The notes under the pieces were generated by a model that saw only the letters and a program-made list of their open reading frames with translations, did no database searches and had not been told where the DNA came from. Below are positions 23,706 to 47,996 of a stretch of 64,000 bases of DNA, one piece after another (the first letter of the stretch is position 1; each line of letters begins with the position of its first letter). Position numbers and translations under genes: made by a program. The stretch is from Leishmania martiniquensis (taxonomy: Eukaryota; Euglenozoa; Kinetoplastea; Trypanosomatida; Trypanosomatidae), in assembly GCF_017916325.1 (NCBI RefSeq), contig NC_090159.1, forward strand, positions 561,001 to 625,000, written 5' to 3'.

Positions 23706-25258
23706 GAGGGTGTCAGCGTACACACGCACAGAGAGAGAGAGAAAATCGTACACGACTCGATATCTGTGGCGCGCACCTCGGCTGATCCGCCCGCCGCTGC
23801 ATATTGCTGAATGCGTGCGTGTATGTGTGTGTTAGGGTGGGGGGGTCCCACGACAGCGGCTCTCCTTCCTATCTGCCGCCTCCTTGCTCGACCCGCTCCC
23901 ATGCCGCCCACCCTCCGTCAGCTTCGAGCACTGTTCCGCATGTACAGAGCATAAAGCGCCATCTTTTCCCTCTTTTTCTGTTGGCGTCCGCTCCCCACTT
24001 CCTTTCCCTTTCCGCCGTTGCAAAGCGCGCGTCGGCCTCCTAATCCGTCTCCTCTCTTCCTTCACAACGCCCCTCCCCTCCCCCTTCGCCCATCGATGGC
24101 GCCATGTATTTCATCTCCCCTCCTCCCCCCTCCCTCTGTCTTCTCATATATACATAAATATGTACATATGTATATGTATTCATGTACATTGCGTGCGTGT
24201 GTGAGTGAGTGTGTGTGTGTGCCACGTCGCGCTAACGAGAGAGAGAGCGGTGAGGAGAGGGAGAGGGGAGGCTGCGGGGCAGGACGGGCCTGCGGGCCGA
24301 CTTTTCATCGTTGGGAATGGGGAAAGGGGCGCAGCGGCTGATGAGCTTGACGCTCCGTAGGCCACCTCTCCTCACCGGTCCACGCGCCGCTGCCCCTCTT
24401 TCCCCACCCCCAACGATGTGCCGTCGCACCAAACGTCTTCTCCCCGTCTTCGACGTGTTCTGTTCATCTCCTCCGTTGCGCCGCTCGGGTGCCAGACAGA
24501 AGCGTTGGCCAGACATGAATGTAAACGAAAGCTGATCTCCATGTGGTGTACTCTTCTTCTTCCCGATTCACCTTTGGCTTTGCCGCGGAGGCTCGTCCCT
24601 TTCGCTGTCCCGAGTGCGGCCCTTCAAACAACGGAGAGCCCTTCCCCTCTGACGGTCACGCTCCTTCACCAGAGGTGCCCGGTCGGAAGCAGAAGAGAAA
24701 GGCCGCAGTGGGAGAAGAGGACAGAGGGAGGGGGCGGCAGGGGCCGTAGTCGCGTCGGGTTGCCGGCTGCTTTTCCCAGTCCGTCTCGGTGATGACCATG
24801 GCGCGCCCTTGCCCTTTTTCTTTCTCTCTCTCTCGCCTATGTGTGGGTATGCGCGCTACGGTGCCTGCACAGCCAACGTGTTCTCACTCATTTGGAAGCG
24901 AAGCAGAACTGGCCAAAAACTCAGTGCCGCAAACGGAACGTGCGAGGGGCCCGTGGATGTCGGTGGGTCTCCACTCTCCTTCTCCACCTCCCTTTCTCCC
25001 TCTTGGTCTGGGGCCGATAGCGTTCGTGCCCGTGTGAAAGAGCGGGCTGAAGTCGGATGGGCCGGCTGGTGTCGAGCGCATCTCAGTGTGCACATTCTCA
25101 GAGAGAGGGGGGGTCTTACTCTCTCCCTCTTCCACTTTCTTCTCTCCCTCCCTCATTGTCCTCGTGGCTGCGGCTCTCTCTGCCGCCCTACGCTCGTGCA
25201 CGCGTCTTCTCGTTCAACGTGCGCCTCTACGCACACGCCATCATCATCCATGTCCTCC
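23706..25258. other. Leucine-rich-repeat gene 3' UTR and spacer
   Basis: No gene recognised. ATG is common here (about 20 by eye), unlike the next 7.3 kb. A TA/TG-rich microsatellite lies at about 24145-24200. From about 25117 to 25258 the sequence has no AG and is pyrimidine-rich, which is read as the trans-splicing signal of the following leader. Confidence 0.6.
24145..24220. repeat. TA/TG microsatellite tract
   Basis: Alternating TA, TG and CA dinucleotides with a short palindromic character (tatata, gtacat) followed by a GTGTG run. Low-complexity sequence in a spacer; its length may vary between strains. Confidence 0.75.
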
Positions 25259-25260
25259 AG
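25117..25260 (+). promoter_or_regulatory. Predicted spliced-leader acceptor opening the long leader
   Basis: A stretch of about 140 nt, rich in pyrimidine and without any AG, ends at the AG at 25259-25260. The last ATG before the ATG-poor zone lies at 25250-25252, just inside this excluded segment. ATG depletion begins immediately after the AG, which is the pattern expected if mature transcripts start at 25261. Internal acceptors further downstream are also possible. Confidence 0.5.
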
Positions 25261-25445
25261 AACAACCTTCCCCCTTCCTCCCCTTGCCGCTTTCCTTCTT
25301 TTCACCGTGACACACACTCGCGCCCCGCGCACACCGTGTGCATCACACAACCACATCTTCTTGGGCGCGCCCGCGCCCTCTCTCTGAAGAAGGAACAGCT
25401 GTCCCTTCCCCCCTCCCCCTCTTCCCTCCTCTGTACTCGCCTTCA

Positions 25446-25449
25446 CACA

Positions 25450-25480
<31 letters not shown>

Positions 25481-25487
25481 GCGCGCA
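25446..25487. repeat. CACG tetranucleotide repeat
   Basis: About nine tandem units of the tetranucleotide ACGC flanked by a CA run, lying inside the candidate long leader. Simple microsatellite. Confidence 0.85.
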
Positions 25488-26640
25488 GATCCCTCGAGGA
25501 AGCGCTGTACCCTCGCCTACTCAAAGGGCAGCTCTCCTCTCCTCTATTCTCTCTCTCTACTTTTGCTCTCCTCCACTTTTTCTCGTTAGCTGCCGCATTT
25601 AAACGCGCTAAGGTACCCTCTCACCTGTTCAGTCTTCTTTCCTCCCCCCTTGGTACTCCCGCAGACCGACCTCCACGGATACCCCCTTCCCCGCCGTGCA
25701 CGAGCAAGCACCAACCGGTCTTCCTTTCCCCTCATCTCTCTCTTCAATTTTACCCTAAAGCCCGTGCTGTCACTTCCCCTCACCCTCACCCCCCTTCCCC
25801 ACCCCCGACCTCATCAGCACGTGAAGGGTATACTTCAACACAGCCGCGGCACACACAGGTGCAGTTCATCCCCCTTCCTTTCTGTCACACACGTTCTTTC
25901 TTGAGTTCCTGAGACCGCCTGCCTCTTTATTTTCACGTCGTCTCCACCCCTTCGCTTGCCTCTCGTGTTCCCCTTCCCGATTTATTCACAACTCCCCTTT
26001 TCCTCCATCGCAGACACTTCATCCATCACGTTATCTCCCCTTTCGGCTTGACACGCCGCTCACCACCGCTGCGGGCTGTATTCGATTCCTTCAAACAGAA
26101 CCAAGCGAAGAAGCTCTCACTGGGGGCTGGTGAGGCCACACACACACACATACACACATACACGAAGGCAGAGTCGTTCGCGTACAACACGAGATCCGAT
26201 TTCGCCTCCTCAAAACCAGCACACAGGGACAGAGCCAACTGCAGTGCGTGGGTGCGTGTGTGTGTGTGTGCTTCATCTAATTCAGCTCGTTCCCCCCTCT
26301 CTCCTTTTTTTGTTTGCACAAGTGCGCGCCTGTGTGGGCGCGCTGCGACTACGACTGCGACTGCGACTGCACTCGTTTCTTTTCCTCTTTTCGTTTCCCT
26401 TTTCTTTTTTCTCTGTTAGCCGCTGTTGTCTCTTTCCACCACACATCCGTGCGTATCCGCAAGCACTATCCGACCGTCATCGAGCTCATCGCTTGTGACA
26501 ACATCCGCTTCTCCTTTATCTATCTCGTTTTTCTTGTTTCTGTGTCTCTCTTCGTCTTTCTTGTGAGGTCGTTTCAGCTCTTCACGCCAGCTCTTCCTTC
26601 TCTCGCTGTTTCCCTGCCTGAAAGCCTGACTCGCATCTGC

Positions 26641-27030
26641 ATGCGTGCTTCGGCGCCTTCCGCCCCTTTCGCTTCGTTTTGTGTAAGTGTGCTTCTTCCG
26701 CGAAGATCGATCTCGCTCCGCGAGGGCTTCCTCTTCTTTTACTTTTGGCTTCCGCCTCGCCTCCTCGTCGCGCTCCCCCTTTTTTTCCTCCTTTCGGTTC
26801 TCTCTCACCCTCTCCCGTTCTTTCTCTTACCACCACCACTACCGCCACTTCCCCTTCCTCCTCCCTCATCATCATCATCTTTTGTTTTTGCTTTTTTTTG
26901 TCTTATCTCTGGTAAAGCTGTTTCTACACGTGTGCATTCCTCACTTGTGTCCATTTTCTTCACTTTGGGATCTTTTCTTCTCCTCCTCTACTGCGTGTGT
27001 GTGCGTGTGTGTGTGCGATCTCATCTTTGA
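26641..27030 (+). other. Longest upstream ORF in the candidate leader (129 codons)
   Basis: This is the only upstream ATG in the leader that opens more than 20 codons. The predicted peptide is made of Ser, Leu, Phe and Pro from CT-rich sequence and shows no domain, so I do not call it a gene. If the leader begins at 25261 this ORF would inhibit downstream initiation. If an acceptor near 27533 is used it would be absent from the mRNA. Confidence 0.35.
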
Positions 27031-27480
27031 ACGGTTTTCCTGCCCTCCCCCTCTTCTTTTTTTTTTTGCTTGCCTTGTGGTGCATTTCTTCTCCCTGCTG
27101 ATTCTTCAGTTGGCTGCTGTCCTCGTCGAGAGGCGTTTCTCCTCGTTGTTTGGTATTGGCGGCGTAGACGTTTCTCTTTGGCACCTATCCGTCTCCGCCC
27201 TCCGTTTCGTTGCACCAGGTGTATTGCTTCGACGTCCCTGGACGTTCCTCTTCCCTCTTTCCCCCCCCCCCACACCCTCACAGCTGTGGTGGCTCGCTTT
27301 TCGTGTGCGCGTTGTCCGCTTGCCGCCACATACACCCCCCTTTTTTCCTTTCGCGTGCCTCTTTTGATTGACTTTCGGTTCGTTGACTGATTTTTTCGCT
27401 TGCGACTAACGGACGCTCTGACTGCGAGGCGGCGGTGGCCATACAACCACACATACACACACATATATATATATATTGGA

Positions 27481-27534
27481 CTTTTCCTCTCCCTCCTCCT
27501 CCTTTCTCCCGTTCCTTTTGGTGCGATCGCACAG
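27481..27534 (+). promoter_or_regulatory. Alternative spliced-leader acceptor candidate inside the leader
   Basis: A CT-rich tract ends at the AG at 27533-27534 and is followed by an A-rich block. No ATG occurs from here to 29952, so a transcript starting here would avoid the long upstream ORF at 26641. Confidence 0.4.
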
Positions 27535-29040
27535 ACAGGCAGACACAGACAGACTCTTGCGATCCCGTGTTGAAGGCCAAAGGAAGCCTGGCGCACCTTC
27601 GCACACAGCCGAGCCGCTCAGCAGCTGAAAATACGAGGAAAAGCGAAGGAAGCGAAGAAACTTAACGATAAAACGGGGAAAAGGACACAAAGGCTCGACG
27701 GGCATCTCCAACGAAAAAAACGCCCGAGGAGACTTCTGTGCAGATCACGAACGCTGAAGCAAACGTCTACCGAACGCTCGTGCGGCGCTTTCCTCTTTTC
27801 CTTTTTTTTTGTGTCGGTGCTACTGCTTCTGCGTGGCCGCTTTCTCTCTCTCTGTCTCTGTCTGTCCTGTCTTTTTTCTTTTTTTTCGCTACACCCCATC
27901 CCCTTTTCCCCATAAAACATTTGCTGTTCGCCTCTTTTTTCCCTTTCTACAACGTTCATTACACCGGTACAGACGCACACAGAGAGAGAAACGTGAAAAA
28001 AAATCGGGTGCGCCCACCAAAAAACGCAACGAACGTGACAATCCGCGCGGAGAGCGAAGCGGTGGAAGAGAAAAAAAACAAAGACAGCCGAACAACCAAG
28101 CAGCAAAAAAATAAAAAAGATACCAGCACGTAAAGAAAAAACAAAATAGACGAGCGCCCTCGGGGAAGAAAAAAAGGGAGAAACACCAAGCTGGCGCACC
28201 ACACGTTGCCAAAGAGAATTGCCATCATCATACAGTAGAACGAGCGAGTGCTTCGGGGCCGGGGAGGGGAGTGCAGCACGCGCTCAATCAAGCAGCAGGT
28301 GAAGCGCAAGACTCAGCGAAACGGCTGCAACGCGTTGACTCTAGAGAAGGTGCCGAAAGAAAAGAGCCGATCGAGCGAACACACACATACACACACACAA
28401 AAAGGGAAGTGAAAGCCACACAGACAAACACAGCCACAAACACAGAGAGAGGGAAAAATTGGAAGACAAAACGTCTCTCGGACGCGCGCGCTCTCTCTGC
28501 CTGGTGCTTCTGTGCACATTAAGCTTCCCCATAGGTACACACCAATACCCGCACAAGGAGCGGCTGCTGACAAACGGGCTGGGGGACACACTTGGATATA
28601 TACGCTGACAAAATCTGTATCGTGAACGAGCAAACAGCAGCAGTCCGGCCTCACCCCCCCCGGCGCCCTTCTCTCTCTCTCGTGTTGTGTCGGCTCTTTT
28701 CGCTATTCTGCAGGATCCATTTTTTTCTTTCTATATTTCTCTTCCCCCTTTTTTGTTTGATCTTCGGGCTTGCTTGATTGCCAACGCATAGAGTATCCTT
28801 CGCCCCTCCCTCCCTCCTTTTCCACGTGTACGCGTGCAGGTGAGCGTTGATTCGTTGGCGATTGACGCGTGTCTCTCTTTCTCTGGTCGTCCCCCTCTCC
28901 TCTCTGTCTCTCTGTCTGGTCTTTTCGTGTATTTTCCTCTTTGTGTGTATTTTCGTCTCTCTGAGATTCTTTTTTGTTTTCTTCTCTTTCCTTTTCTCGT
29001 CTCGCTTTATTCTCCACCTATCCCCTCCACTCCCCCCTCC

Positions 29041-29069
29041 GACCACCACCACCACCACCACCACACACG
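29041..29069. repeat. CAC trinucleotide repeat
   Basis: About seven tandem CAC units followed by a short CA run, inside the candidate long leader. Confidence 0.8.
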
Positions 29070-32000
29070 CCATTGACCCATCTGCATCTGCTTTCTTCCC
29101 CCCTCCCCCGAAAGTGAACTCGTTCATTTTCTGCCCCCCCCTTTTTTCATTCAGACACGGTCAGACGCGCGCGTACATATCCGACATTCTCTCTGACTCT
29201 GACTTGGACCCTCTCTCTTTGTCTCTCAGCTGCTCTTTTTTTTTTAGCGTGTGTGTGTGTGAGTGTGCGTGTGCGCTCGCTCTGTGTGCTTATTCCCCAG
29301 CTCACTTTTGCTGCCGAGTGCCGTTGGATCTGATCGGCGGCAGCAGAACACGTTTTTCGCTCACTGCTCGACTTTGCCTTCTTCTGCTTCGTCTTGCTTC
29401 TCGCTGTGTGCGTTCATTCACCTCTCTTTTTTCTTTTCTGTTGCTCTTCTTTTCTATCCTTCCTATCGTTGGCGCACGTAGATACCCCCGCACTGGCGTA
29501 GGCTCGCACGTGATTAGCTCTTCCCCCCTTCCCCCTTCCTCCCCCCCGCTAACTCTAACCCCCCTCCTCCTCCTTCCCTCTCGCTGCGCCATCATCCGAC
29601 TCAACGCCTTTTCGTTCAGTGCCTTTTTTTTTCTTCTCTTTCACGTCTCGCTTCTTGTCTGCTCCGTTTGGCGTTCGTTTCGGCGTCCTTCTGTCTCTCT
29701 TCATCGTATCTCACACCTCTCCGCTTTTTTTTCCCCCCACTCCCTCTCAGAAAAGTACATACGCAGACATTTCTTGCATCCTCCTCCTTTCTGCTTCTGT
29801 CTGCCCCTCCGTATTCCCCTGCTTGCCCACTACTCTTACCCTGCCCCCCTCCTCTTCCCTCCCTTCCTCCCTCCACCTCGCTCTCCTCAAACTTTGAGGT
29901 TCGATACAGAGGAAAAGGGCCGGAAAAAAGGAAAGGGCACGCACGCACGTGCATGCGTAAGGTTTGACTTGCTGCTGCTGCCGCTGCTGCGTGTCACCCG
30001 CCGCCCTGCCTCCCTGAACTTGGTCGCCTAGCGTCGACCAGATCGTTTGTGCGCTCTTCGAAGGCTTCCGTTTATATATATTATATATATTATCTCTCTC
30101 TCTCGCTCTTTTCCTCTCCTTCTGTGTGCGCCTTTTTTTTGTTCTCTTTACGTCTTTGCTCATAAACTTTCGCTCCCCCCAAACACACTTTTTTCTCGCC
30201 TCCCTCCGTGACAGTACCCGCGCGTCACTTCTTAAAGCTCTCCCTTTTATATTTCATCTCTCTCGCTCTTCGATTTTTTCTCCTGTTGTAAACATCTCCC
30301 TCCCTCTCTTGCGCGTGTGTGTGTGTGTGTTCCCCTCTTTTGTATGTACATTCACTCTTATGTAATCTGGCAATAGTGATTAGCACACACATACACACAA
30401 AATCGTATTCACAAACGAACACACACACACACACACAAACATTAAGAAGAAGCGGTCGCCAAAGTCGACGGCAGCCGTCCAACAACCGCACATCTTTTTT
30501 TTCTTCCCTTTGAGCGCAGAAGAGAAGGACAGACAGACACACTGCAAAAAAAATCAACAACAAAAGGAAGTCTGTGCCCCCCCCCACGCGCACACACACA
30601 GCCCTTTATCTTGCGTTCTTCTCTGGCGCTGAGTGCGCTCGCGTGTGCGTGCGTGCGTGTATGCTTGTCCTGTCCTCAGCGATTCCGCTTCCCGTCTTTG
30701 TTTTTTTTTCGTTTTAACGTCTCCACTTCACTTACTCTCCGTTCGCCTTCCTTAGCTCCTCTGTCGTCTCCCTCCTTCCCTCTGTCTCTCCGTACTCCGT
30801 CGCCGCCAGACGAAAGCGTAAATCTTTTTTTCTTCGCGTTCCCTTTTGCTTTCAGCTCATTTTTTCCCCCGTCTCTCACTTGCTCTCTCTTTTTTTTGGT
30901 GTGCGTTAGCGCCGTCGTTTGGTTTCAGTTTTTTTTTCCTGGTTTCGCTGCACTGTCGCTTTCTGTTTGGACGAATCCTCTCTCTTTCTCTCTCCTCCTC
31001 CCCTCTTTCATATATATATATTATATATATATATTTCCCTTTCCTCTCTCTCTGGGCTCTTCGTCTTCCGTTCACTTCGCTCGCTCTTTTTTTCCTCTCG
31101 CGACTGTCTCCTTCGCACCACTGAAACATTTTCTCTGGTATTCAAGTTTGCTGTCTGGGAAGAGGGGCACTGCGTCCCTCACTCTTCTTTTTTTTTCTTG
31201 CTCAAATCCTCTCTCGCTCCACGCTCATCGACATTTATTAGTATTATATCAGCCAAACTCCCCTTTCTTGCGACCTCTCGTCATCTACGTATTCCCCCTT
31301 CCCCCCCGCCTCTCCTCTCTTCAGCATTCCACCCTCTCGTCTGTTTCTGTCTCCTACTCCTCCCCCCTCTCTCTCTGTGTGCGTGTGTAAGTCTCGGTGT
31401 GTGTATTGGGCACACATCGATTTAATTTTCTCCTTCGTTGGCCTTTTTATTTTTGCTGTACGCGGCGTAGAACGAAAGGAGCGGCAAAGGAGCTGGACCA
31501 CACGTGACTAGGCAAAGCTACATCAGCCAAAGAGTGTGCCGCCGCTCTTCCCTCACGCTCGGCTTATCCACTATTGCAAGGCTACGCTGTTCGGCCCTTT
31601 TAGTGGTCCCGTACTCTTCTTCTCCCTCTTTTCCCCTCTCTTGCGCCGCGACTCGCTTGCTCTCGCCTTCGTCCTGATTGACATTTTTTTTGGACTCGGC
31701 CCCCTATTTCGTTTCTATTTTGGCGCCTCATCTGAAAGGTCGTGTGGGACTTCGCAAACATAAGTTATATACACACACACACACCTCTCTCTATATATAT
31801 TCCCTTTTGCGCGCATTTATTTGTTTGTTGCGCTCTCCTGTTGCTCGCTGCTTATTTTCGAAGGTCGGCTCGTGCGTGTGTGCGTCCCTCGACTCTCTCC
31901 TCTTTCTGTCATTCTGTGTGCGGGTGTGCCTGCGGTGTGCACTTGCACGGTCTTTCCTCCCTTGGCAGTGTTGGGCCTTCTCGATTGTTTCCCCTCTCCC

Positions 32001-32160
32001 CCCTCTCTCTCTTTTCTTTTCCGTTTTCCCTTTCCTTCGCGTGCGTGCGCTTTCACGCCTGTCGACCTCGTCCTCCATTTCTTTGGCTCAGCGTTCCGTC
32101 TCTCCCTCTCTGACGTTACCTTCTTCTGCATTGTCAGCGACATCGGCCGTGCCGCTCCTC

Positions 32161-32235
32161 GCCTCCTCCTCTTCCTAAGATAAGGCAACCCTTTCCTCTC
32201 TCCCTCTTTCTCTCCCTAAAGTGCTTCCTTTGCAG
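32161..32235 (+). promoter_or_regulatory. Proximal spliced-leader acceptor candidate of the RNA-binding protein gene
   Basis: A pyrimidine-rich stretch ends at the AG at 32234-32235. The 291 nt from there to the start at 32527 contain no ATG. This is the alternative to a long leader: if it is the main acceptor, the upstream 7 kb would be intergenic and its ATG depletion would need another explanation. Confidence 0.45.
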
Positions 32236-32526
32236 ATATCTCGCTTGCCTCGCTCGTGTTTTGGGCCACATTTTGGCTGGCAAGCAACCCAGGTCATCAG
32301 TACAGCAGGCTTGGGCATCAGCAGTGGTGAGGAAGTCCCTGCTGGCGACTCCCTCCCTCTCTCTCTCTCGACGTTGCGGATCGAAGCGCTGACGAACGCT
32401 TCCCTGAACACCGATTCTCTGTGTGGCTGCCTTCCCGCCCACCGCGGCGCGGCTCTTCCGGAACCTCTTTCACTGTAGCGCCTGAAGTGCACCCGCGTCA
32501 CTCTGAGCACCGCTGGTGAGGCTGCC

Positions 32527-34674
32527 ATGCAGTCCCAAAACAGTTCCACCCGGCCGTCGCAGCAAGATCCATTGCCAGACCTCAACGCCCTCGCCGCCAA
32601 TCCGTTGTTCCCCTTCGCTTCTGCGGCCGGCGCAGGCGGCTCCGGCGATGGACAGCAGCAGCAGCTGCAGACGACGACAACGCACCTCTACGAGGCATCT
32701 CATCTTGATTGTCTCGTGAAGGCCATGTCGGGCGACGACAAGAAAGCCGCGGTGGCGCCAGAGCCGGCGTCCAAAAACGCACGCACCGACCTTACTGTCT
32801 CGATGCTGGCAGCGCAGGGTACCGCTCTCAATGCGCTGCCGCAGCCGCCACTGTTTGTTGCCTCTCAGTTCGCTCCGCTCGGCGCCGGTGCAGGCTCCAA
32901 CGCAAGTCGCTCCTCGGCCCCGTCCCAAAGCAGTACCTCGGCGCCGGTTGGATGCGGTCCGCAGATGTACAACGGCGACCCCACTTTTCTCTACCCAACC
33001 TGCGCCAACGAGGTGCTTTCTTTGACACCAACGCCGTCAGCTCAGGGCCAAGCCGACGGCTTCGTCGCCGGCGCCACCACCACCACCCCTCCGGCGACGC
33101 CCATGAGTGCTAGTGCCGTGAACAACAATACAAGTACCCCTCTCTCACAAGCCACGGTGAGCGGCGCAGCGACGTCGTCGAGTGTGACCGTGCCTTCCAG
33201 CCAGCCAAACGATGCTGAGGTGCGCAGCAACCTGTTTGTGTGTGGTCTCCCCGTCAGCGTTAGCGACAAGGAGCTGCTAGAGATGTTCGAAGAGTATGGG
33301 GAGATCGAGTCCGCTAAGGTCATGCTCGACATTCACACTGGCCGTAGCCGAGGCATCGCCTTTGTGAAGTTTAAAAGTGTGGAGGATGCTGAGAAAGCAG
33401 TGGACGCGCTGAACGGCACGACGTTGAATGGGCATCAGCTCACTGTGCGTGTGGCGAACTCGCGTGCCGCCTACCTGCCAGGCAACCCGACCAACAAGAC
33501 ATTTGTGCGCAACGTGCCGCTGACAGTGTCACGCACGGCTCTCTTCGACTACTTCGCACAGTTCGGCGAAGTCACCGACCTGTCTATTAAATCGGACACC
33601 GCGCAAAGCCGCCACAGCCCGTCCGGCCGCTCCGCTAGCGCTGCAGATGACAGCGGCGACGACCGGCTGAACATTGTCTTCATCACGTACTCGACCAAGG
33701 AGGCGGCTGCCAAGGCCGCCGAGGCGACGCACACGAAGACACCGTTCGCGGAGTGCAATGGTGTGCCACTGCTGGCGAAGGTCGCCGAGGACACGGTGCG
33801 CCGCATGGAGCGCCTGTCACGTCGCCAACGCTCTGCCGTGGGCGGCGAAGGATCGAGGGACGTGAACGCGGCGACCAGTGGTGGCAGCATCCCGTCGATG
33901 AGTAGGTTCGTTGCGCCGCCGATAGCTGCCGCTCTTCCTCCTGGAATGATGATGCCATCGATGATGCCCATGACCGGCGGCTTTCCTCCTGCGACGTTTG
34001 TCTCTGTTCCGAGCATGGGTAGTCCACCTGACCTGGCCGCAGCCGCAATAATGCCCGCGAGCGTGCCAGGTGACCACATGACGGCCTTCCGAGATGCCAA
34101 TGGAAACACCATCTACGCCCCAGCGCCACCGAATCCCAGCGGCGCGGCTGGCGGTATGGCGTTCGCTGTGCCGGGCAACATGGCGCAGTCGAGCATGTTC
34201 TTTGGTGCACAGTCGCCATCGCTGCCAATGGCCCAGTCGCCGTCACAGCAGCCTCAGCAGCCGCCACCACCGCCGGCGGCACATCCGCAAACTTTGTACA
34301 TCAGCACACCAAACGGCTTTGTTCCAGCCCCGCAGTCGCAGCAGCCGCAGCCTTTACCTCAGCCGCAGCCGCCGCAGTCGCAGCCGCAGCCGCAGCCGCA
34401 GCAGCCGCAGCCGCAGCCGCAGTCGCAACCTCAGGCTCAGTTGCAGTTCTTCCCAGCACCACCACCACTGACGTCGGCACCGCCCCAGTCGCAGCAGGCC
34501 ATACCAATGGCAGGCACTGCACCTGGACAGTTTGTGTACATGCAGGCATCTAACGGGTCGATGGTGCCGGTGATGTACAGCGGCTCGCAGCCGGCGGTGG
34601 CACCAGTGATTCAGCCGCAGCAGATGAATCCCTATTTCGTGATGATGGGAGGACAGCAGCCTCCAAGCCAGTAG
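32527..34674 (+). CDS. RNA-binding protein with two RRM domains and a Gln/Pro-rich tail
   Basis: A 715-residue protein with two RNA-recognition motifs in tandem. RRM1 spans about residues 234-310, with RNP2 LFVCGL at 236-241 and RNP1 RGIAFVKF at 275-282. RRM2 spans about 324-415, with TFVRNV at 325-330 and a less typical RNP1 (NIVFITYS) and an inserted Ser-rich loop. RRM1 resembles ELAV/poly(A)-binding type domains. The N-terminal 230 residues are Ser/Ala/Pro/Gln-rich. The C-terminal 300 residues are Met/Pro/Gln-rich, including a near-perfect Gln-Pro repeat at about 600-640. Such proteins act on mRNA stability or translation, the main level of gene control in trypanosomatids. The specific target is not deducible. 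The start is the first ATG after 30661, well over 1.8 kb upstream, so it is unambiguous. Confidence 0.92.
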   Translation: MQSQNSSTRPSQQDPLPDLNALAANPLFPFASAAGAGGSGDGQQQQLQTTTTHLYEASHLDCLVKAMSGDDKKAAVAPEPASKNARTDLTVSMLAAQGTALNALPQPPLFVASQFAPLGAGAGSNASRSSAPSQSSTSAPVGCGPQMYNGDPTFLYPTCANEVLSLTPTPSAQGQADGFVAGATTTTPPATPMSASAVNNNTSTPLSQATVSGAATSSSVTVPSSQPNDAEVRSNLFVCGLPVSVSDKELLEMFEEYGEIESAKVMLDIHTGRSRGIAFVKFKSVEDAEKAVDALNGTTLNGHQLTVRVANSRAAYLPGNPTNKTFVRNVPLTVSRTALFDYFAQFGEVTDLSIKSDTAQSRHSPSGRSASAADDSGDDRLNIVFITYSTKEAAAKAAEATHTKTPFAECNGVPLLAKVAEDTVRRMERLSRRQRSAVGGEGSRDVNAATSGGSIPSMSRFVAPPIAAALPPGMMMPSMMPMTGGFPPATFVSVPSMGSPPDLAAAAIMPASVPGDHMTAFRDANGNTIYAPAPPNPSGAAGGMAFAVPGNMAQSSMFFGAQSPSLPMAQSPSQQPQQPPPPPAAHPQTLYISTPNGFVPAPQSQQPQPLPQPQPPQSQPQPQPQQPQPQPQSQPQAQLQFFPAPPPLTSAPPQSQQAIPMAGTAPGQFVYMQASNGSMVPVMYSGSQPAVAPVIQPQQMNPYFVMMGGQQPPSQ
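34330..34440 (+). repeat. CAG-CCG hexamer-like repeat encoding Gln-Pro
   Basis: Tandem CAGCCG units with CAGTCG and CAGCCT variants, inside the RNA-binding protein gene. They encode alternating Gln and Pro. The tract is likely to vary in length between strains. Confidence 0.85.
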
Positions 34675-36689
34675 ACGCGTGCCTCGAGCAAGCGTGCGCG
34701 CGTTAGGTGACGGCTCGGCCGAACACTCTCTCGCGTGCGTTTCGCCATGCATCTCGTGCTCGTCCCTCTTATTCATGCTATGAACCGTTCCCTCCCCCTG
34801 GGGGGGTAGGAGTGCCAGCCTTCCTCCTCCGAAGATGTATTTCTAATTTCTTCGCATCCCCCTTTCCCGGCCTCGCCGCCTTGCCCCCCCCCCTGTGCTA
34901 TCGCTCAGTCCTTCGACACTTGACGACGACTGGCTGCGCCTTCCTCTTCGCCACTGTCCTCCCTCCCTTCCTCCCCCTCCGGCTGGCCCGCCCGCCCCCT
35001 GTCATGTCGAGTGGCCGTCAGCGCGACGTCTTCCGTTTTCCTCTCACATCTCTCTCTTCCTCCCCTGCGCCTGCGCAACGCTCTCGATCCCGCTCCACCC
35101 CACCTATCATCGTCATCGTCTTCACTGTTTTCTCCTTTTAAATATCTTTGCTGTCCGCTGGACTGCACTTTCCACGTGAGTGTGCGTGTATGTGTGTACT
35201 TCACTCTCTTCGACAGATCATTCGCATACACACACACAGACAGACAGACAGACATAGATGCACACAGACAGATGCATGCATGGAGATATTGACACGAAAG
35301 CCCTCGCTACCCCCCTCTTCGCTGGTCCTTTCTCGTTTCAAGGCACACGTGTATGTGCATACGTACGTGCACGTATCCGACTGTTTCGCCGCATTTTTTC
35401 CCTCTGTGCGTTTGTGTGTGCTATGAATCTCTAGCCCCCCTCCCCTCCTTTTTCCCCTGCCTGAAGCGCGCCCATTTTTCTTCGTTTCTGTTGTAAACGC
35501 ACACGCACATAAGCACACAGACAGAGAGACACGGGGACTGGCACTGCCACTGACAGACACGTATCACTCTCACTCACTAACGCTCTGTCGCTCCTAATGG
35601 TATTGCTTTATTTGCCTCATTTATCTTTGGTTTCCTCGTACTTCCTCTCTTCCCTCTCTCTCGCTGCCTTTTTCAGTCTTGGATGACGACTTCTCCGCGC
35701 GTGCTCGTTGGTGTGCGTTACAATAGTTCTGACTCCTCTGCTTTTGGCCTTTGCGTTGCATATTTTTCTCTGTAGCTCCCTCTGTCCCCTTCTTCCCCAA
35801 CACACACACACACACACAAGCGCGGGCTTCTCCTTTTTCTCTTCCGCTGTTGGAGGACGACTGCTCGCACCTTCCCCCACTCACGCCCCGCCTCTCTCGT
35901 TCGTTTCTGTCCTCTCTTCCCCCGCATGTCTAACCCCCCTTCCCCTCCCCCTCCCCCTCCCCCCGCTTGGTCGGCTGGTCGGGTGTTTTTTTCCCTGTAC
36001 TTGTGGTGCTCGTCGTGGATAGGTTTGTCTGCATACGACTGTGCTCGTATGCCCGTGCCCGTATAGTATTCGACCTGTATGCATTTCTGTGCCCAACCCT
36101 CTTCACTGCCTCCTTTGGGCTGGGGGAATCTGTGCGTGCCTTTGTATGCCTGCGAACGCGCGCGCGCCCGCCCGCTCTCTTGTACCCCTCCTTCTTCTCT
36201 ATCCATATCCCTGTCGCCATTCCTCCCTCAGCCCCCATAGACCTCTCCTTTCTCCATGTGCTCTGCCCCCTCTTTCTCCCTGGTCTTCTATCGTCTCCAC
36301 GGGTCTCTCATGCAGATGTGCACCCACTCTATCATTTCATGCAGTGCGCGCGCCTGTGTGTGTGTGTGTGCGTGCGTGTATGCATGTGTGCTCAGTTTTT
36401 TATGTCATCGCTTCCTTCCGTAGGTCATCTCGCCGCGTTTTCCTCCTCCTCCTCCTCCGCTTCGATGGGGTGCTGCCTCTATGGAAATGACTGGCGACTT
36501 CGCCTCGTCCTCCGCTCTTCTCGCAAAGCTCGTTTTTTCGTTTATATTGGCCTTCCCCCCTCGTCTGCTGCTGCTGCTGCTCCCTCCTCCCCATGCTCCC
36601 CGCATTGCCTGCTAGCGCGGTCCTTGTAGGGGTTGCCTCTCAGCTTTGTTTTTGCATGCGTGCGCGCTCTGCTCTCCCCCGTTCAACGC
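34675..36689. other. RNA-binding protein 3' UTR and spacer
   Basis: No gene recognised. The stretch has pyrimidine-rich sequence, an ACAG repeat near 35235-35253, CA and GT repeats near 35800-35818 and 36356-36380, and a CCCCTC run at about 35935-35965. ATG occurs at normal frequency here, unlike the zone upstream of the gene. Confidence 0.65.
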
Positions 36690-37830
36690 AGCTGGCCACC
36701 TCGTCGCGGTACCAGCAGCTCTGCTCCTCACAGAGTCGGGGACGCGGGGAGCCCGCAGCCTGCCCTGAGGCGCTGCAGCGGACTGTTTCGTGCCTGCGAG
36801 CAGGTGCTGGCTGGCGGGCTGTGCGAAAGGGGCCTATGGCCATGGTCGCGCTTGTGCCAGCTCGCCACGAACCGCGCCGACGGCTCAGCAGATATCGACG
36901 CTTACTCCTGTGAAGGTCGTGCGGATACAGGTGAAGGTGGCGTGTCTCTGCTGCCACAGACGTATAGCCATACCCCACCTGTCGCGGCGCGTGCGGGCGA
37001 GCCATTCCAGTCGCGCCCTCCCCACAGCATCGACGGAAGCGGAGGTTATGGAGGTAGCGAGCCCCCCCACTCATCAGACGACAGCGTCGCACAGAAGGGG
37101 GCCCTGGGACGCGAGCGAAAGAAACGTGAGCGCCATGCGCACGCGCTGTTGACCGCACTTCACATGATGTATCGCACGTACCAACAGCGTATGCAGATGC
37201 CTGGGGGGGGGTAGGAGCGGTACGTGGGAAAAGGCGCGCGGGACTGCGTTCTCATCAGCCCCGAAGCGCACGTGCGCGAAGCAGAAGGCATCTCCTGTAT
37301 CCAGCTGGGTGGCCTGATGAGGTGCAGGAGCGGGAAGCATCTCGACTACAGCCGGGGACTACATGGCCGAGTCTCCCCGAACCTAACATGCAGTGCCGCT
37401 GCGCTACTTTATGAAGCGCAGCTGCTTGAAGCGTCTCAGGAAGAAACATGAGATGATGGCAAGGTGCACGGTCTCCGTGGACCTTGACCGGGAGCTTTTC
37501 AGCTCCCTCCCTGACCCTGGCGCGCATGCACGTCGGCTGCCCCCTTTTCACCCGAACGGCAGGTGCCACTGCCCACACCCTCGCGCAGGACCCTGCAGGT
37601 GGCGTGTTTAGGTCGAGGCGCGCATTGCACTCGGGTTCTGTGTGGCGGCGGCAGCGCTAGTCCTTCACCAGAAAAAAAGAAGGGGACACGGAGAGCTGAG
37701 CAGAGCTCCGTGAGGTGCACTTCCCCGATTTGGCGGCAGAGTGCTTCATCCTGGACGGCGAGGGCTGCGTCGTCGTTGCGCTGCAGTCTGAATGGACTGA
37801 GATGCGTCTGCCCACCCACGTGTATACTTG
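36690..37830 (+). pseudogene. Decayed protein-coding gene (relic A)
   Basis: A GC-rich island with coding-like codon use, flanked by low-complexity spacer, but broken in several places. Coding-looking text runs in one frame to about 36870, in a second frame from about 36783 to a TAG at 37212-37214, and continues in that frame after the stop to 37451. It then moves to another frame at about 37393-37611 (including SVDLDRELFSSLPD) and to another at about 37705-37830 (HFPDLAAECFILDGEGC). The pieces look like parts of an ordinary protein rather than random translation, but I recognise no family. At least three frame changes and one stop are needed to link them. Assembly errors cannot be excluded, although intact long genes nearby argue against poor sequence quality. 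Confidence 0.5.
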
Positions 37831-40800
37831 TATATATATATATGTACATATATATTTGTGGGCGTGTGTGTATCTGGATGACGCGTGGCAGGTCTCGTGC
37901 AAAGAAGCTTAGCCCGTGCATTCCCGCGTTCTTGCCTCCCCCTGCCCATCTGCTTTCGGAGTTGTACGCTACCTGTGACTGACGCCGCTCTTTGTGCACG
38001 CTCTTAGGTCTGATGTATGGCGCCTCTTTCCTCTTTCCCCACCAACCCCTCATTCATATTTCTTATCTTTCCCCTCTCTGTCGGCGTACGCGCCTTGTGG
38101 TGCCGCTACTGCTTGCCTGCGTGGTCGATGACCTGCGTCTGCGCACACACATATATATATATATATGTATATGTGTACGTATGTAACTGTGTCTGCGTAT
38201 GTGTGTGATATTTCTCGGACGTTTCTTTGCCATCGCCTTTCCGTGGCGGGTCGAGAAGAAGCAGAAGAGGAGAACGGAGCCTTAACGGAAAGCCGAGACG
38301 AAGGAAAGGGAGACCAGCTGGAAGGAGGTGAGGGGGTGGTGTTGAAGAAATGGGCAGCTGTGCAGCCTCGGGCAGAGGTGGAAGGCGGGGGGGCTGTGCC
38401 TCTCCACGCAGCGCTTTGCTCTGTACGGAATCGACTCCGCTTAACTCTCTGAGCTTCTTACTGCGCCGTAGTTCCCAACCACATCTTTCACACCTATTCA
38501 TCCCTCTTTCTGAGCCACAGGTGGGGCGTGAGCACCGCACACTCATCGCTGCGGGTCTGTGTGCTGATGTCGGTCTGTGTTGAAGCGATGTCAGATCTTT
38601 TCTGTTGCTTTCCTTGCGTTTTTCTTTGTGTAGCTGTTTTCGGTGCACCTCTGCGGTTTGCCGTGCCATCTACGTTGGAGGCTCTCGTTTCTTCTCTTCT
38701 CTGCCTTCGCTTTTTTCTTTCTTTGACGATCACAATTCGTGCTCGATGTGCTTTTTTTCTTTCTCATCGTTCGATGACACACGGCGTGCTGCCGCGGCGC
38801 TGCCGTCTCTGCACCTTTCAGTGGTGCTAGTGAGCAACGCCTGTGAGTGCGCGCGCGCATGTGTGTGCATGTGTGTCTGACCCGCACTCGTGATCGCTCT
38901 CTCTCTCTTTCTCTATCTCATGACCTTCTCTTTTGGCGTGGCGTTTTCGAGGCGCGTAAGGGCCCTCGTGCCCTCTCCCCCCTCTCCTCATGGACGACCC
39001 TCTCTCTTTCTGTCTGCCTGTCTTTCCTCTTTCTTCCGTCGCTCACAAACTCCCAGACAGGCCTCTCCCTCCCTCCCCCCTGTGCTCTGTGGTATCCTCA
39101 CTCCATTCCTCTTGGACGATTTCATCGAGGCCCCTTCTCACACACACACACACCTCTTCTCGAGGGCTTTGCTCTATTCTTCCGCGTCCTTCTCTACCGG
39201 CGAGACATCTTTTCCTTCCTCCTCCTCCTCCCCTCGATTTCCATTTGATTTGGCGCATATGTGTTGTGTGTGTGTGTGTGAGTGCGTGCGTGAGATGCCG
39301 TTTGCCCGACGGCGTGTAAGCAGGTGCGTCTCGTTCTACTTCCCTTTCTCTTATCGTGTTCCCCCAGCACCCCCCTCCCCCTCCTCTCCCTGATTATCGT
39401 TGCATGCGCGTAAGCCTTTCTGTGGGTATCCCACCATGCACATCTGTTTGGGACTGTTTTATTGTGCCCTCGGCTGCTGCGGCTGTTGTAAAACGCAACT
39501 ACTGTGACGAGGGGAGGAGGGGAGGTGACGAGTGTAGTGGGTGAGGGGTGGGGGGCCATTGAGTCCAACGGAAGGCCGCCTCCTCCCCCCCTCTTTCTTA
39601 CACACACACAGACACACAAAGGCCTACACATGTGCGTACGCGCCGATGGCCACCTCGCCCACTGCATGGATCTCAGTAGTAGTGCTCATCTCTCTCTTTC
39701 GCTCCCCTTTTTTTCTTCCCATCCCCGTCGATGACCCGCTGTATTACCAGACGGATACAGCATCAGCTTCCACTTTCGCTGGACTGTATGCGACCACCCG
39801 CCCTGGCCTCTCCACTTTTACACAGTCTTTAACAAGCACAAACGCACGGCGAAGCATCGCCTCCTGTGTGCCCTTTCACCATCTATGACAGAGATGGATG
39901 AAGAGAAGATGACGGACAGACATACGCGCACGCGTGCGAAGGAGAGCAGAGGGGGAGAGGAGCACCACGTGGTGATCTGCAGTTTTTTTTTCTCTCTTGA
40001 TTCTTCTCTCGTCTGTACGGCATTGTTACCTCTTCCGTAGGTGCGCGTCTCTCTCCCCTTTCTCTTGTGCTCTTCTCTCGGACGTATGTATATATATTTT
40101 TTGTGTCTGCGTTTTATGTGCGGGCACGTGCGCGCCTCTGTGCGGTTGCTCAGCAACGACGCCAATACGAGGCGCCGTCGTGCATATTGTCCCTGTCGTG
40201 ATACGACTCGCTTGACACCTCCCATCTCTGCTTTTTCTGTTGCTCACCAATGCGCTAAACGCCACGCTCTTGCACGCTACCGTTCTTTTTTTTGTTTCTC
40301 TTTGACACTCGTTCAGCGCGCACTATTCCCTCTCTTCCTCTTCTTCGTTGTGACGCTCTTCTCTCCGCCGTTGCCCCCCTTTTTTGGTTGCTCCTGTTCA
40401 TTTATGCTCCTTCGATAGGTGTGTGCAAGAAAAAAAACATGCGTGCGAAGGCGTGTCTCTGTGCGTCTCTCTCCGTGTACGCCCTCGTTGACTTCTCTCT
40501 TCTCTCTCTGTGTTGCTCTCACGGATGCCCGTGTGCTGAAAGTGCCTATGTCTTCGTGCATGCACATTTTTGCTTCCATTGAGGTGTCTCACCGTTGTTC
40601 GTCCCTCTTGGCTTGTTGCTGTATCTATTTGTCTTGATTTAAGTCGTTGCTTTCGTGTGAAGTGCCGTGAAGAGCGCGGCGATCCGCGGCATTCCTCCCC
40701 TTCCGCCCTCTCCCCCTTCCCCCCTTTGCAGCCTCTCTCTCTCTGTGTGTGCTGACGTCGTATGGTAAAGCTCTCAAAGACTGAAAGAGGTAAACAGGCG

Positions 40801-41636
40801 ACGAGAGAAAGCATGACGCATCCATGGGGAGGGGGAGCCCTGCCGTAGAGCAAGTGCTCTCCCCCGGGCCGCCTCCGGCGCCCATCCACCTCTCTTCAAG
40901 GTGACTCGGTCTCGCGTTCGGCACCTGCAGGAAGGAGGGTGAGGATGGGTGTAAGGGTGAGTTCGCTGGCAGGCGCGCGACTTTTGCTTTCTTTTTCCCT
41001 GGCGCTCTGGTGCTTGAGGAAGAGAACCGTGCCTACGTGACAGGCAAGCTGCCGGATGAGTCTTCTGTGCGCAGTGCTGCGAGGACTGCTCTCTCTCTCG
41101 CTTCTGCCCTCTCTGTCAGGAGGGCCCTGTCCCACTCTGTTGACAGCTCTCACTCTGCCCCCCCTTCGTTCTCTGAGGAAGTGCTTTGCCCCTGATGCCA
41201 CGCGCGCCCTCATCTCCCTCCTCATCGTTTGCCTCGCTGCGTTTTCGTGCTTAGAAGCACACAGTTGACGCCGTGCTTCCCCCCTTCCCTCTCTCTCTGC
41301 TCTCTACAAGCACGCGCATCCACGGCGAACGGCCTTCACACTCACTCACACATCCCTCCCCCTCTGGCTATCGCCCTCGTTCATCCCCTCCCCCTACTCC
41401 GCCCGTCCCCGCCTTCGCCGGCGAGGACGCCTCGAGGCGCTTCTATCTCTTGTATTGCCCGCCTTCTTGTATGCACTCTCTTGCACGGTCGCTGACTCAG
41501 CAGGCTGCACACAGCGGGGCTTCCCATACCGCCGAGCAGCCCATCCATCAATACAGAGTAGGGGAAGAGAAAAGACCCATTGCCGTAGCCAGCAAAGAGT
41601 CTCAGTAGGGGGGTGGTGGTGGGGGGTCTGCCGCTC
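37831..41636. other. Spacer between the two gene relics
   Basis: No gene recognised. TA/TG microsatellites sit at 37829-37860 and 38148-38190, CA runs near 39140-39152 and 39600-39618, and a TA run near 40086-40100. Pyrimidine-rich tracts alternate with short purine-rich stretches. A tract around 41281-41400 could once have served as the trans-splicing signal of relic B. Confidence 0.6.
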
Positions 41637-44600
41637 ATGTCGAATGCGCCCGCGTCGCTACCTGCTCTGAGCGTCGGGGAAGCGAACGACTTTGGCCCAC
41701 AAGGGGTGAAGGACTCGCGGCCTCCTAACGCTGGGGTGACTGTGGTGCCCCTGAGGCCGCACTTTTCGTAGTTGCCTCACCCGGTGACGTTGCGCCCGCT
41801 GTCGCACCTACGTGGCTGCACAGTGCGACGAGGAGCGGAAAAGGGAGCAGCACCACCGTCACTCGGAGACAGGCCGCTGCGTTTGCCATCGCTGCGACTG
41901 TCTGCCGCTCACTTTTCATGCAGCAGCACAGCGGCAGCCCACGCCAGTACACCGTCCCGTTCAACCTATCGCCCCCGACGCACACTTCCGCTCGTGTTTT
42001 CTTTTGCAAGGGCGACGGGGATAGTCGACAGCGGCTGCCAGAGCGACGGTACCCACCGTACACCATTGCCTGCTACCACGGCGACCGTGGTGGTGCCTGT
42101 GACAATGGTCGGCGACCGTGCTCCCCTCCGCAGGGCAGCCATCCTCACCGTGCGCTCACTACTCCTGAGACGACCACAGATGACAGGTGCGTAGACCGTG
42201 CTGAGGCGCGACCGTCAGCCTTCGACGTGACGCCTGCCCTTTTATCGGAGACGGCAGGGGAAAACACGCAGGTGCCTGATGTCACCACTGCCACGCAATC
42301 GACGCCGCTACCACCTCCGGCTCTTGAAGAAGTCTTGGCGTCGCCGGAGGTGGCTCGGCTCGTGCGCAGGCTTCGGCGGCACATGGAGGAGCTTGCAGAG
42401 CTCGCTGGAAGCACTAGAGGAGCAGTACGGTACTACGCATGAGGGCAGTGCAAGGGGTGGTGACGCTGCGAAGTGTGCACTGCCTCCTCTACTCCCAGCC
42501 GAGGTGGAGGCTGCTTACATGTCTGCTGTCACTAATGCCGAGCATCATTCCGGTAACCTGTCGGCAGCGCGATCCTGCGACGGTACTCGCGGCTCGACGA
42601 CCGGCGTGGTGCTGCCGGCGGCAGCAGAAGGGTCCCAGCGTAGTCACCCTGGCTCCACCGGAAGCAGGGCTTTTAGGATGCGATGTGCCCTCTGCTCGAG
42701 CCCCGAGAAGGGCTGTGGCTGGTGGTGAACGGGTCTACGTAGCGGTCAACGGCGCTGTTGGGCGGCGTTGCTCGGCATCACCGGGGCACCCTTCGCCACT
42801 GGAAGGGGCCCCGCACGAGCGGCGCATTACCACCACCCCTCGACAGTTTCCAGCCGTTGCCTTCTACAGCCTCCGAGGCGGCCACTCCGATCTTGACGTC
42901 GCCTGAGTCTGCGAGCACGCTCAACTCGCCCATCGCCCTTTTCGGGTTTACTGAGCTACGCACAGCCAGTAACTATCGCGACGAGGGCGGCTCTGGCGGC
43001 GATGTAGCGCTAGACGTATCGGCGGTGCGCCGGCTGCGGGGACTTCGGATTGGAAATGGCGAAGGGAGCGTATCCATGGACCGTCCTGTGAGCAGCATGC
43101 GCAAGCCATTGGGTAAGGGATGTGACACTGGCGCTCCAGAAGAGCTTTGTGGAGTGCTTCGGGGGGCGCCCCGTGACGTCACTTCAGGCTCGCTCTTCAA
43201 AAGGAGGCCCAACAGCTGACGCCGCCGGTTGCAGCAGAAATGGCGACGTGAAAGCGGCGCTGAGTCACGGAGGGTATAGCGGGAGCAGGGAATCACTTAT
43301 CACACTTGACGTCTACTTGCAGCGCATGCGTATCCCCTTCACCGACCAAGGGAGGGCGACGTCGACGAGGAGCCCCAGTCGCTGCCCAGCCGTAGCGACA
43401 GGTGCCGGAGAGGGCTCATTCATGCTGGCCTCCGGTGCGTCGATGTTTTGCCAGTCGCTTACGACGACGGCCACCATTGGTGCGTTGGAAGAGGATGCGT
43501 CATGCGAGGACGATATCGCGATGTGCGCGCGCGAGGTGAGGATGACATCGCAGCCCGAGGACACGCAGAGGAGGCCGTATGGGCTGCGCCCGGGCTCGAT
43601 GAGGTCGGGGCGATCATTCGCTGTGCCACTCCAGTGGCCGAGTCGTCTGCCGTGATGCTGGACCAGAAGCTCAGTCGCGCGATTCAGTCTCCGCCGCCAG
43701 ACACGACGCGCCGCCCCTCGACTGCGGCGGGGCAGATGAAAGCAGCGGCGGCGAAGTGGAGCACCTTCATGCGGCTGCTGCCGGCCGAGGGAGCTGACAC
43801 TCCCGTCCTCAATGCCGGCGACGGAGTGTTGACGGACGCGCCGAGCTCCTATGCAGACATTACGGCGGCTCGCAGCTCGACAGACGCGGAGGTTAGTACC
43901 AGTGCAGCGATAATGAACCATGAGGTGGCGACCAACAGGAACGCTAGCGACTTCGAGGACACGGAGGCTGACGGTAAGAATGCAGCGGCGAACGTGGAGA
44001 ACGAGGTGGGCGGAGATCGGGAGCCTAAATCCCCAGATTTCGCCGCCGCCATCGCAGCGCGCGAGACTGCATCGCTGCGAGCTTTGGGCCCTCAAAACAG
44101 TACCACAGAGGGTTCTGCGTTTGCCTCTCGTGGTCGCGTCGCCTGTCGTGGAGACGCTGTACCGCCCCGACACGGGCTGCGCGGTGCCACGGGCCCGGCT
44201 GCGCCGATCTCTAGATGACAGGCACACCGACGTGCGAGAGCCTCAGCTGCATTGCTACGATCGCCTCTATCCAAAGCTACTTGATGCTGCGAGCGATGGC
44301 AAGGATCTCCACCTCGCGTATTCAGCGGCGGGGCAGAAGGGTGGATGGCAGCTTGCACGATAGCGTAGGTTTCCCACTCGGCAAAGCCGCCAAGACGCTG
44401 TCCTTCTCTTTCCCACGCTCCAATGCACCGTCGCGGTTCTTCGACCCATTCAAACACCGATTGCTGACGTGGGCGGCCGCGTTCTCCTCTGCCGCCCCGC
44501 TGCCACCTCCGCGGCCAGACACCTCTGAGGCCGTGTGGTGCAGCTCTACGAATCCCGTGGACGCTGCTTCTGGCGCAGCCTTCTCCACTGCTGCAGAGTT

Positions 44601-47900: not shown

Positions 47901-47996
47901 AACGGACGCTGGCGCTCGGGTTCTCCTCCGCCTCCCTATTGAGTCGGGTGATCCCCTCGTGGCGGCAGCAACAGCAGGGACTGAAACTTTCCAACC
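44994..47996. other. Spacer before the UBAC2-like gene
   Basis: No gene recognised. The stretch is mostly CT-rich with short repeats, such as CTCG near 46205-46225. A patch around 46860-47020 is different in composition and ends in an A-rich stretch at about 47000-47015; it might be an old retroposon remnant but I cannot show this. A long pyrimidine-rich tract at about 47510-47597 precedes the predicted acceptor. Confidence 0.6.
47510..47599 (+). promoter_or_regulatory. Predicted spliced-leader acceptor of the UBAC2-like gene
   Basis: A strong CT tract ends at the AG at 47598-47599. The following 397 nt contain no ATG until the start codon at 47997. Confidence 0.55.

What the first reader, a model, noticed from the sequence alone, without database searches (positions are those of the whole stretch)
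25261..32526. A 7.3-kb sense-strand ATG desert upstream of the RNA-binding protein gene
Seen directly: by hand I count only five ATG on the plus strand in 7,266 nt, against about 85 CAT and about 40 GAT. GAT has the same base composition as ATG, so low A or G does not explain the gap; the CT bias alone would account for some but not most of the CAT excess. The desert includes purine- and A-rich blocks, and ends exactly at the start codon. The 1.5 kb upstream has ATG at ordinary density, and so do other spacers. Inference: the region is scanned by ribosomes as a 5' leader, probably the longest in this window by more than ten-fold, and selected to lack upstream starts. That would be a remarkable leader for a gene-expression regulator.
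Basis: partly seen in the sequence, partly recalled or inferred. Interest (0 to 1): 0.92.

Follow-up and report, generated by a model that had tools for sequence, protein, structure and literature searches.

The report
Giant start-codon-free leader of Leishmania regulator
A Leishmania gene for an RNA-binding protein is preceded by more than seven thousand bases almost cleared of start signals, and most of its sister genes show the same pattern, which suggests that ribosomes search unusually long stretches of RNA before making these regulators.

Summary
Window 25261-32526 holds 5 sense ATG, against 43.7 +/- 5.3 in 500 dinucleotide shuffles (minimum 28). ATG is the most depleted of 64 triplets and the antisense strand is normal. 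The depletion stops at the start codon of a two-RRM protein, probable orthologue of T. brucei DRBD13 (ELAV-like).

(1) The loss depends on start-codon context. In seven deserts (28.7 kb), ATG with a purine at -3 number 1 against 74 expected from shuffles; with a pyrimidine, 33 against 122. Against real control spacers (58 of 190 with a purine) Fisher p is 2.4e-4. Scanning ribosomes would select for this. (2) It is a family trait. Of the nine best RRM matches in this genome, 8 have a strong-context-ATG-free run of 1.9-7.7 kb ending at their start codon, against 1 of 56 other genes sampled.

Best explanation: a multi-kb trans-spliced 5' leader, or nested leaders, traversed by scanning and purged of upstream starts. 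AUG depletion in leaders is a known principle; its length, near-completeness and sharing by one RNA-binding-protein family look new. No RNA data were available; transcript ends are inferred.

The parts
25261..32526 (+). ATG desert, inferred 5' leader (or nested leaders) of the RRM gene
   Evidence: 5 ATG vs 43.7 in shuffles; 0 of 5 with purine at -3
24849..25260 (+). Zone of uncertain distal border: the run free of purine(-3) ATG begins at 24849, weak-context ATG at 24957, 25057 and 25250 lie in it; an AG at 25259-25260 is one of many possible trans-splice acceptors
   Evidence: run 24849-32526, 7678 nt; contexts; sequence; acceptor use not tested
24839..25602 (+). Two overlapping + ORFs (182 and 181 codons) across the distal border, no Pfam match; coding status unknown
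26641..27030 (+). Surviving weak-context ATG with the longest upstream ORF (129 codons)
   Evidence: context atctgcATGc
29953..30717 (+). Four surviving weak-context ATG (29953, 30344, 30360, 30661) with ORFs of 4, 10, 1 and 18 codons
   Evidence: none has purine at -3 or G at +4, none overlaps the start codon
27511..28760 (+). Purine-rich part of the desert (250-nt bins with 0.61, 0.34, 0.68, 0.63 and 0.40 purine), free of ATG all the same
   Evidence: bins; 0 ATG in 27001-29000
32527..34674 (+). CDS of a 715-aa protein with two RRM domains, probable orthologue of DRBD13; start context purine at -3
   Evidence: Pfam RRM_1 1.4e-32; start residue conserved in four other Leishmania proteins and T. 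b. gambiense best-match test; in-frame stop at 32476
23706..25260 (+). Spacer after the upstream ORF (21894-23705) with ordinary ATG: probable 3' UTR and control
   Evidence: 23 ATG vs 16.5; 8 of 22 with purine at -3 in 23706-25200
34675..41900 (+). Spacer after the RRM gene with ordinary ATG: control
   Evidence: 24 of 96 ATG with purine at -3; 13.3 ATG per kb vs 0.69 in the desert

Best explanation
The region is the 5' untranslated leader of the downstream two-RRM gene: one very long trans-spliced leader starting near 25.0-25.6 kb, or a nested set of leaders of which the longest starts there. 43S complexes loaded at the cap scan it linearly to the first AUG in good context, which is the RRM start codon. 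A mutation that creates a good-context AUG aborts the scan, so these have been removed by purifying selection over the whole length; a few poor-context AUG, which ribosomes can pass, survive. The length and pyrimidine-rich make-up probably hold output of a dosage-sensitive regulator low and steady. Shown: depletion, strand, AUG specificity, dependence on the -3 base, end at the start codon, recurrence in paralogues. Inferred: that the region is in the mature mRNA, where it begins, scanning itself, and low output.
For: 5 ATG vs 43.7 +/- 5.3; antisense normal; uniform over three parts; pooled over seven deserts purine(-3) ATG 1 vs 74.0 (lowest of 200 shuffles 53) and pyrimidine(-3) ATG 33 vs 122.0; G at +4 0 vs 30.7; near-cognates not lost beyond control spacers; 8 of 9 best RRM matches have such a run ending at their start codon, 1 of 56 other sampled genes (Fisher 1.6e-8; 1 of 16 with spacers of 2.5 kb or more, p 7e-5); start codon conserved in four other Leishmania proteins; composition-matched windows elsewhere have ordinary ATG; L. 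major trans-splice sites assigned to genes reach 7252 nt upstream (PMC4538839, passages).
Against: No RNA evidence. Typical Leishmania leaders are short (medians 233-242 nt), leaders over 200 nt lowered a reporter in T. brucei (PMC6597758, passages), so 7 kb of scanning is a strong claim. Control spacers also have fewer purine(-3) ATG than shuffles expect (58 vs 70.1) and more pyrimidine(-3) ones (132 vs 87.6), so the shuffle ratio 1 vs 74 somewhat overstates the context effect. One of nine paralogues (G) has no desert; paralogue B keeps 16 weak-context ATG in 4.7 kb. One antisense run of 1551 nt free of purine(-3) ATG exists in the window. The distal ends of the deserts of the window, C and D overlap + ORFs of 181-357 codons. 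Deletion of DRBD13 changed little in L. mexicana promastigotes (PMC13405223, passages).
Confidence: 0.84

Rival explanations
1. Nested short leaders: many acceptors across the region are used, most mRNA has a short leader, and rare long forms alone drive the purge of ATG.
For: Alternative acceptors are common in Leishmania (mean 2.4 sites per gene in L. mexicana, PMC4599935, section read); pyrimidine tracts of 15 or more are frequent in the desert (6.9 per kb vs 0.84 shuffled; 3.7 in the control spacer).
Against: Depletion has no gradient towards the distal end, so the distal forms must matter for fitness. This is a variant of the best explanation rather than its opposite.
Confidence: 0.3
2. 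One or more SL-capped non-coding transcripts fill the region and are kept free of AUG for their own sake; the RRM gene has a short separate leader.
For: 2,441 L. donovani transcripts lack an annotated CDS and most carry SL sites (PMC6467909, passages).
Against: In the six + strand RRM loci and two C18 loci the run ends exactly at the start codon, which separate transcripts would not require; no reason is known for context-dependent AUG loss in non-coding RNA.
Confidence: 0.08
3. Compositional or mutational artefact: skewed pyrimidine-rich sequence and simple repeats lack ATG without selection.
For: Composition is skewed, and the shuffle model misfits other triplets as well (AAT 0.34, ATA 3.1).
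Against: Block shuffles agree (45.1 vs 5); composition-matched windows have ordinary ATG (0 of 19 without any); GAT and CAT are common; the loss depends on the base at -3; the purine-rich part is also free of ATG.
Confidence: 0.02
4. Internal entry or shunting delivers ribosomes near the start codon and the leader is not scanned.
For: Would avoid the problem of scanning 7 kb; no direct evidence seen.
Against: Such leaders have no need to lose AUG along their whole length (established reasoning), yet here strong-context AUG are gone throughout.
Confidence: 0.04

Closest known systems
Depletion of upstream AUG in eukaryotic 5' leaders (PMC7889888, 478 species; PMC7049704, fungi; passages read)
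   Same: Upstream AUG are fewer than expected and tend to poor context; purifying selection is the stated cause.
   Different: In the passages read the protist signal concerns the 100-150 nt next to the CDS; here it runs over 1.9-7.7 kb and is nearly complete for good-context AUG.
Long trypanosomatid leaders and uORFs (PMC6084854, PMC2916883, PMC3973304, PMC4538839; passages read)
   Different: In T. congolense the number of uORFs grows with leader length (r = 0.88); here the long leader is nearly free of AUG.
T. brucei DRBD13 (Tb927.8.6650; that this number is DRBD13 is recalled, and fits the review's citation) and L. mexicana LmxM.24.1570 (PMC3794602, PMC6597758, PMC13405223; passages read)
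   Same: Two-RRM ELAV-like protein; protein dosage matters in T. brucei (RNAi and over-expression both killed procyclic forms).
   Different: The passages read say nothing of its own leader; deletion in L. mexicana promastigotes had little effect.
Sex-lethal binding to poly(U) in the msl-2 leader (recalled, not looked up)
   Same: ELAV/Sex-lethal-type RRMs and poly(U) runs in a leader.
   Different: No binding data; poly(U) runs may be trans-splicing signals; msl-2 leader is far shorter (recalled).

Membership tests
Scanned 5' leader under selection against upstream AUG | Sense-strand, AUG-specific depletion | tested here: met
   5 vs 43.7; antisense 85 vs 87.4; ATG lowest of 64 triplets
Scanned 5' leader under selection against upstream AUG | Depletion stronger for AUG in good initiation context | tested here: met
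   Window alone 0 of 5 with purine at -3, 0 vs 15.1 in shuffles; pooled 1 of 34; 58 of 190 in control spacers
Scanned 5' leader under selection against upstream AUG | Depletion ends at the start codon | tested here: met
   Run 24849-32526 ends at 32527
Scanned 5' leader under selection against upstream AUG | Region is part of the mature SL-capped mRNA | not testable with these tools
   No RNA reads available
Scanned 5' leader under selection against upstream AUG | Depletion conserved in orthologues of other species | not testable with these tools
   No other Leishmania DNA is held in the collections offered; paralogues in the same genome were tested instead
uORF-regulated mRNA | Upstream ORFs with start codons in usable context | tested here: not met
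   0 of 5 upstream ATG in 25261-32526 with purine at -3 or G at +4; none overlaps the start
IRES or shunt leader | AUG tolerated in the bypassed part | tested here: not met
   ATG depleted in all three parts
DRBD13 orthologue group | Two RRM domains, ELAV-like | tested here: met
   Pfam; ELAV-like and Sex-lethal chains among the best PDB matches
DRBD13 orthologue group | T. brucei protein picks this gene over its paralogues | tested here: met
   P0024 (T. b. gambiense) 223 bits vs at most 138 for seven paralogues, B not included; that P0024 is DRBD13 was not shown by a call
DRBD13 orthologue group | Synteny with LmxM.24.1570 | not tested
   Same chromosome number and region only; neighbours not compared

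The most novel reading that the evidence does not exclude
A family of Leishmania RRM regulators uses scan length as the control device: 43S complexes walk through 2-7.7 kb of RNA free of good-context AUG, far beyond ordinary leaders, and ELAV/Sex-lethal-like RRM proteins, perhaps the gene's own product, bind poly(U) runs and stall the walk, giving dosage feedback like Sex-lethal on msl-2 (recalled). Runs of 7 or more U are 2.6 per kb in the leader, against 0.69 in the downstream spacer and 0.45 in leader shuffles; the spacer is enriched over its own shuffles too (0.06), and the runs may only be trans-splicing signals.
Probability: 0.25. Interest if true: 0.9.

Novelty: new variant of a known kind. 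Interest (0 to 1): 0.74.

Why it matters
How far a eukaryotic ribosome can scan is, to my knowledge, unsettled; here selection appears to have left its footprint over 7 kb. It offers a sequence-only way to delimit leaders in trypanosomatids (runs free of good-context ATG that end at start codons), and it ties extreme leader length to RNA-binding proteins, the regulators on which organisms with little transcriptional control depend. Existing spliced-leader and ribosome-profiling data could test it at once.

Tried and rejected
Near-cognate starts: the loss of purine(-3) CTG and TTG in deserts (0.74, 0.68) is matched in control spacers (0.67, 0.59), so no such selection is claimed. Structured RNA: no Rfam family reached its gathering score in the window. 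N-terminal extension of the RRM protein: in-frame stop at 32476, 16 codons between. A separate small gene at 26641 (129 codons): unlikely, because the 2.9 kb after it are free of ATG. Low structure: the leader folds weakly (-0.172 kcal/mol/nt) but not clearly less than its own shuffles (-0.190 +/- 0.012, 10 shuffles), so composition carries this. Literature searches (open-access library, listings of 5 to 20 papers each) showed no report of this pattern in their listings; supplements could not be read, and most subscription papers are not held.

Corrections on the way: the three C18 loci were first read on the wrong strand, seen and redone. Paralogue B was first thought not to reach its start codon and C18 to lack deserts (note); one search shows all 15 upstream ATG of B from 548066 to 552211 with a pyrimidine at -3, and its run ends at the start. 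For B, F and H the borders were set by purine(-3) ATG, so zero such ATG there is by construction and they are not in the 34; the window, A, C, D, E, 86172 and 179918 were bordered on ATG count. The 1.8-kb threshold was chosen after seeing the runs; at 2.5 kb it is 6 of 9 RRM genes against 1 of 56 others. Only the nine best of 37 matches were read upstream. Background genes are plain + ORFs of at least 250 codons in C24:1-200000 (15,000 N) and the window, one with a non-RRM gene of unknown function 179918 whose run ends at an upstream purine(-3) ATG (run 1065 nt) and is counted as a miss.
Full report
What is there. The window is G000:C24:561001-625000 of a genome of 32.3 Mb in 41 contigs. The protein at 32527-34674 is 72% identical to one of Leishmania sp. 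Namibia and 65% to one of L. donovani, so the organism is a Leishmania or a close kin; the species is not shown. The protein has two RRM domains; PABP, Hu/ELAV and Sex-lethal chains are among its best PDB matches. Proteins of four other Leishmania species align with it from residue 1, which supports the start codon, and a T. b. gambiense protein scores 223 bits against it and at most 138 against seven paralogues.

The observation. Dinucleotide shuffles give 43.7 +/- 5.3 ATG and at least 28 in 500; block shuffles give 45.1 and at least 25 in 300; observed 5. No other triplet is as depleted, by z or by ratio. The other strand is normal and all three parts are equally poor. The three longest ATG-free runs of the + strand of the window (3312, 1866, 1391 nt) are here; the fourth is 650 nt. 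Half-overlapping windows of similar composition elsewhere average 6.2 ATG per 500 nt, 0 of 19 without any.

The test by context. If ribosomes scan the region, AUG with a purine at -3 should suffer most. Borders of seven deserts were set on ATG count alone: the window's, those of RRM paralogues A, C, D and E on C29, and those of genes 86172 and 179918 on C24. Of the 34 surviving ATG, 1 has a purine at -3 and 0 have G at +4. Block shuffles expect 74.0 with a purine at -3 (lowest of 200: 53) and 122.0 without; observed 1 and 33. Given 34 survivors and the shuffled fraction 0.377, at most one has probability 2e-6. Control spacers of the window have a lower fraction than shuffles would give, 58 of 190; against these Fisher p is 2.4e-4, the more cautious figure. 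Near-cognate codons show no loss beyond that of control spacers. I can think of no compositional or mutational account that removes ATG according to the base at -3.

The family. The nine best matches of the protein in its own genome are the window gene, five genes on C29 and three on C18. I read upstream of all nine (and the loci). Runs free of purine(-3) ATG that end at the start codon measure 7675 nt (window), 3916 (A, C29:534398), 4696 (B, C29:552674), 3932 (C, C29:567999), 6977 (D, C29:588942), 1880 (E, C29:601633), 1867 (F, C18:69766) and 4737 (H, C18:96183); G (C18:79865) has ordinary ATG and a 209-codon ORF in frame before it. F has 4 ATG against 13.6 and H 2 against 28.0 in shuffles. 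B keeps 16 ATG, all with a pyrimidine at -3. Among 56 other predicted genes of C24:1-200000 (15 kb of it N) and the window, 1 has such a run of 1.8 kb or more: 86172, a NIF-like phosphatase by Pfam; among those with an upstream spacer of at least 2.5 kb, 1 of 16. Scanning both strands of the window, the C24 sample and five C29 stretches for runs of at least 1.5 kb gave nine: eight sense, one antisense (1551 nt, window 49956-51506); six of the eight sense runs end at RRM start codons, one passes the weak-context start of 86172, one ends at a short upstream ORF of 179918. The median run over 57 genes is 324 nt, near the median leaders of 233 and 242 nt reported for L. major and L. mexicana. So the window's desert is the far end of a general rule that is stretched in this gene family.

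Mechanism. Most likely the desert is in the mature mRNA as leader and is scanned. Even depletion up to the distal end means that leaders starting near 25.0-25.6 kb matter for fitness, at least in some stage; whether they are the only form is open. The leader is weakly folded (-0.172 kcal/mol/nt against -0.266 for the downstream spacer and -0.327 for the CDS) but not clearly less than its shuffles. In T. brucei leaders over 200 nt lowered reporter output, and both loss and excess of DRBD13 killed procyclic forms (PMC6597758, passages). A long but clean leader could give low, steady output of a dosage-sensitive regulator. This step is inference, and the weak effect of DRBD13 deletion in L. mexicana promastigotes (PMC13405223, passages) tells against an essential role there.

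Known and new. Depletion of upstream AUG is known across eukaryotes; for five protists the passage read speaks of the 100-150 nt next to the CDS (PMC7889888). In T. congolense longer leaders carry more uORFs (PMC6084854, passages). Searches of an open-access library listed no report of multi-kb AUG-free leaders in RNA-binding-protein genes. I rate it a new variant of a known kind.

Limits. No transcripts and no other Leishmania DNA could be examined; the background is about 250 kb of 32 Mb; paralogues were chosen by protein similarity; one of nine lacks the pattern; the length threshold was set after seeing the data; the distal borders of the window's, C's and D's deserts overlap ORFs of unknown status.

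Noticed in passing
window 34675-47996: 13.3-kb spacer without a predicted + gene of 250 codons or more after the RRM gene, with ordinary ATG density; perhaps a very long 3' UTR or small genes.
   Followed up: partly
C24:83625-86171 (L017/L018 region): A NIF-like phosphatase gene (86172) has a 2.5-kb desert with 2 ATG against 17.5; its own start codon lacks a purine at -3.
   Followed up: partly
C24:176404-179917: A 1186-codon gene of unknown function (179918) has a 3.5-kb desert with 8 ATG against 33.5, one of them in good context and one opening a 115-codon ORF just before the gene.
   Followed up: no
L004/L034, C18:78837-80504: RRM gene G, the one paralogue without a desert, is preceded in frame by a 209-codon ORF that ends at a TAA shortly before its ATG.
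   Followed up: no
C29:534398-604032 and C18:68726-96183: The RRM paralogues sit in two loose clusters with starts about 10-21 kb apart, most of that being non-coding by ORF size.
   Followed up: no
window 27511-28760; similar in paralogue D: Purine-rich blocks (up to 0.68 purine per 250 nt) lie inside otherwise pyrimidine-rich leaders of the window gene and of D (0.59-0.66); weaker ones (about 0.5-0.6) occur in the other leaders.
   Followed up: no
window 49956-51506, - strand: An antisense run of 1551 nt free of purine(-3) ATG, opposite a 732-codon ORF; probably a coding-sequence effect.
   Followed up: no
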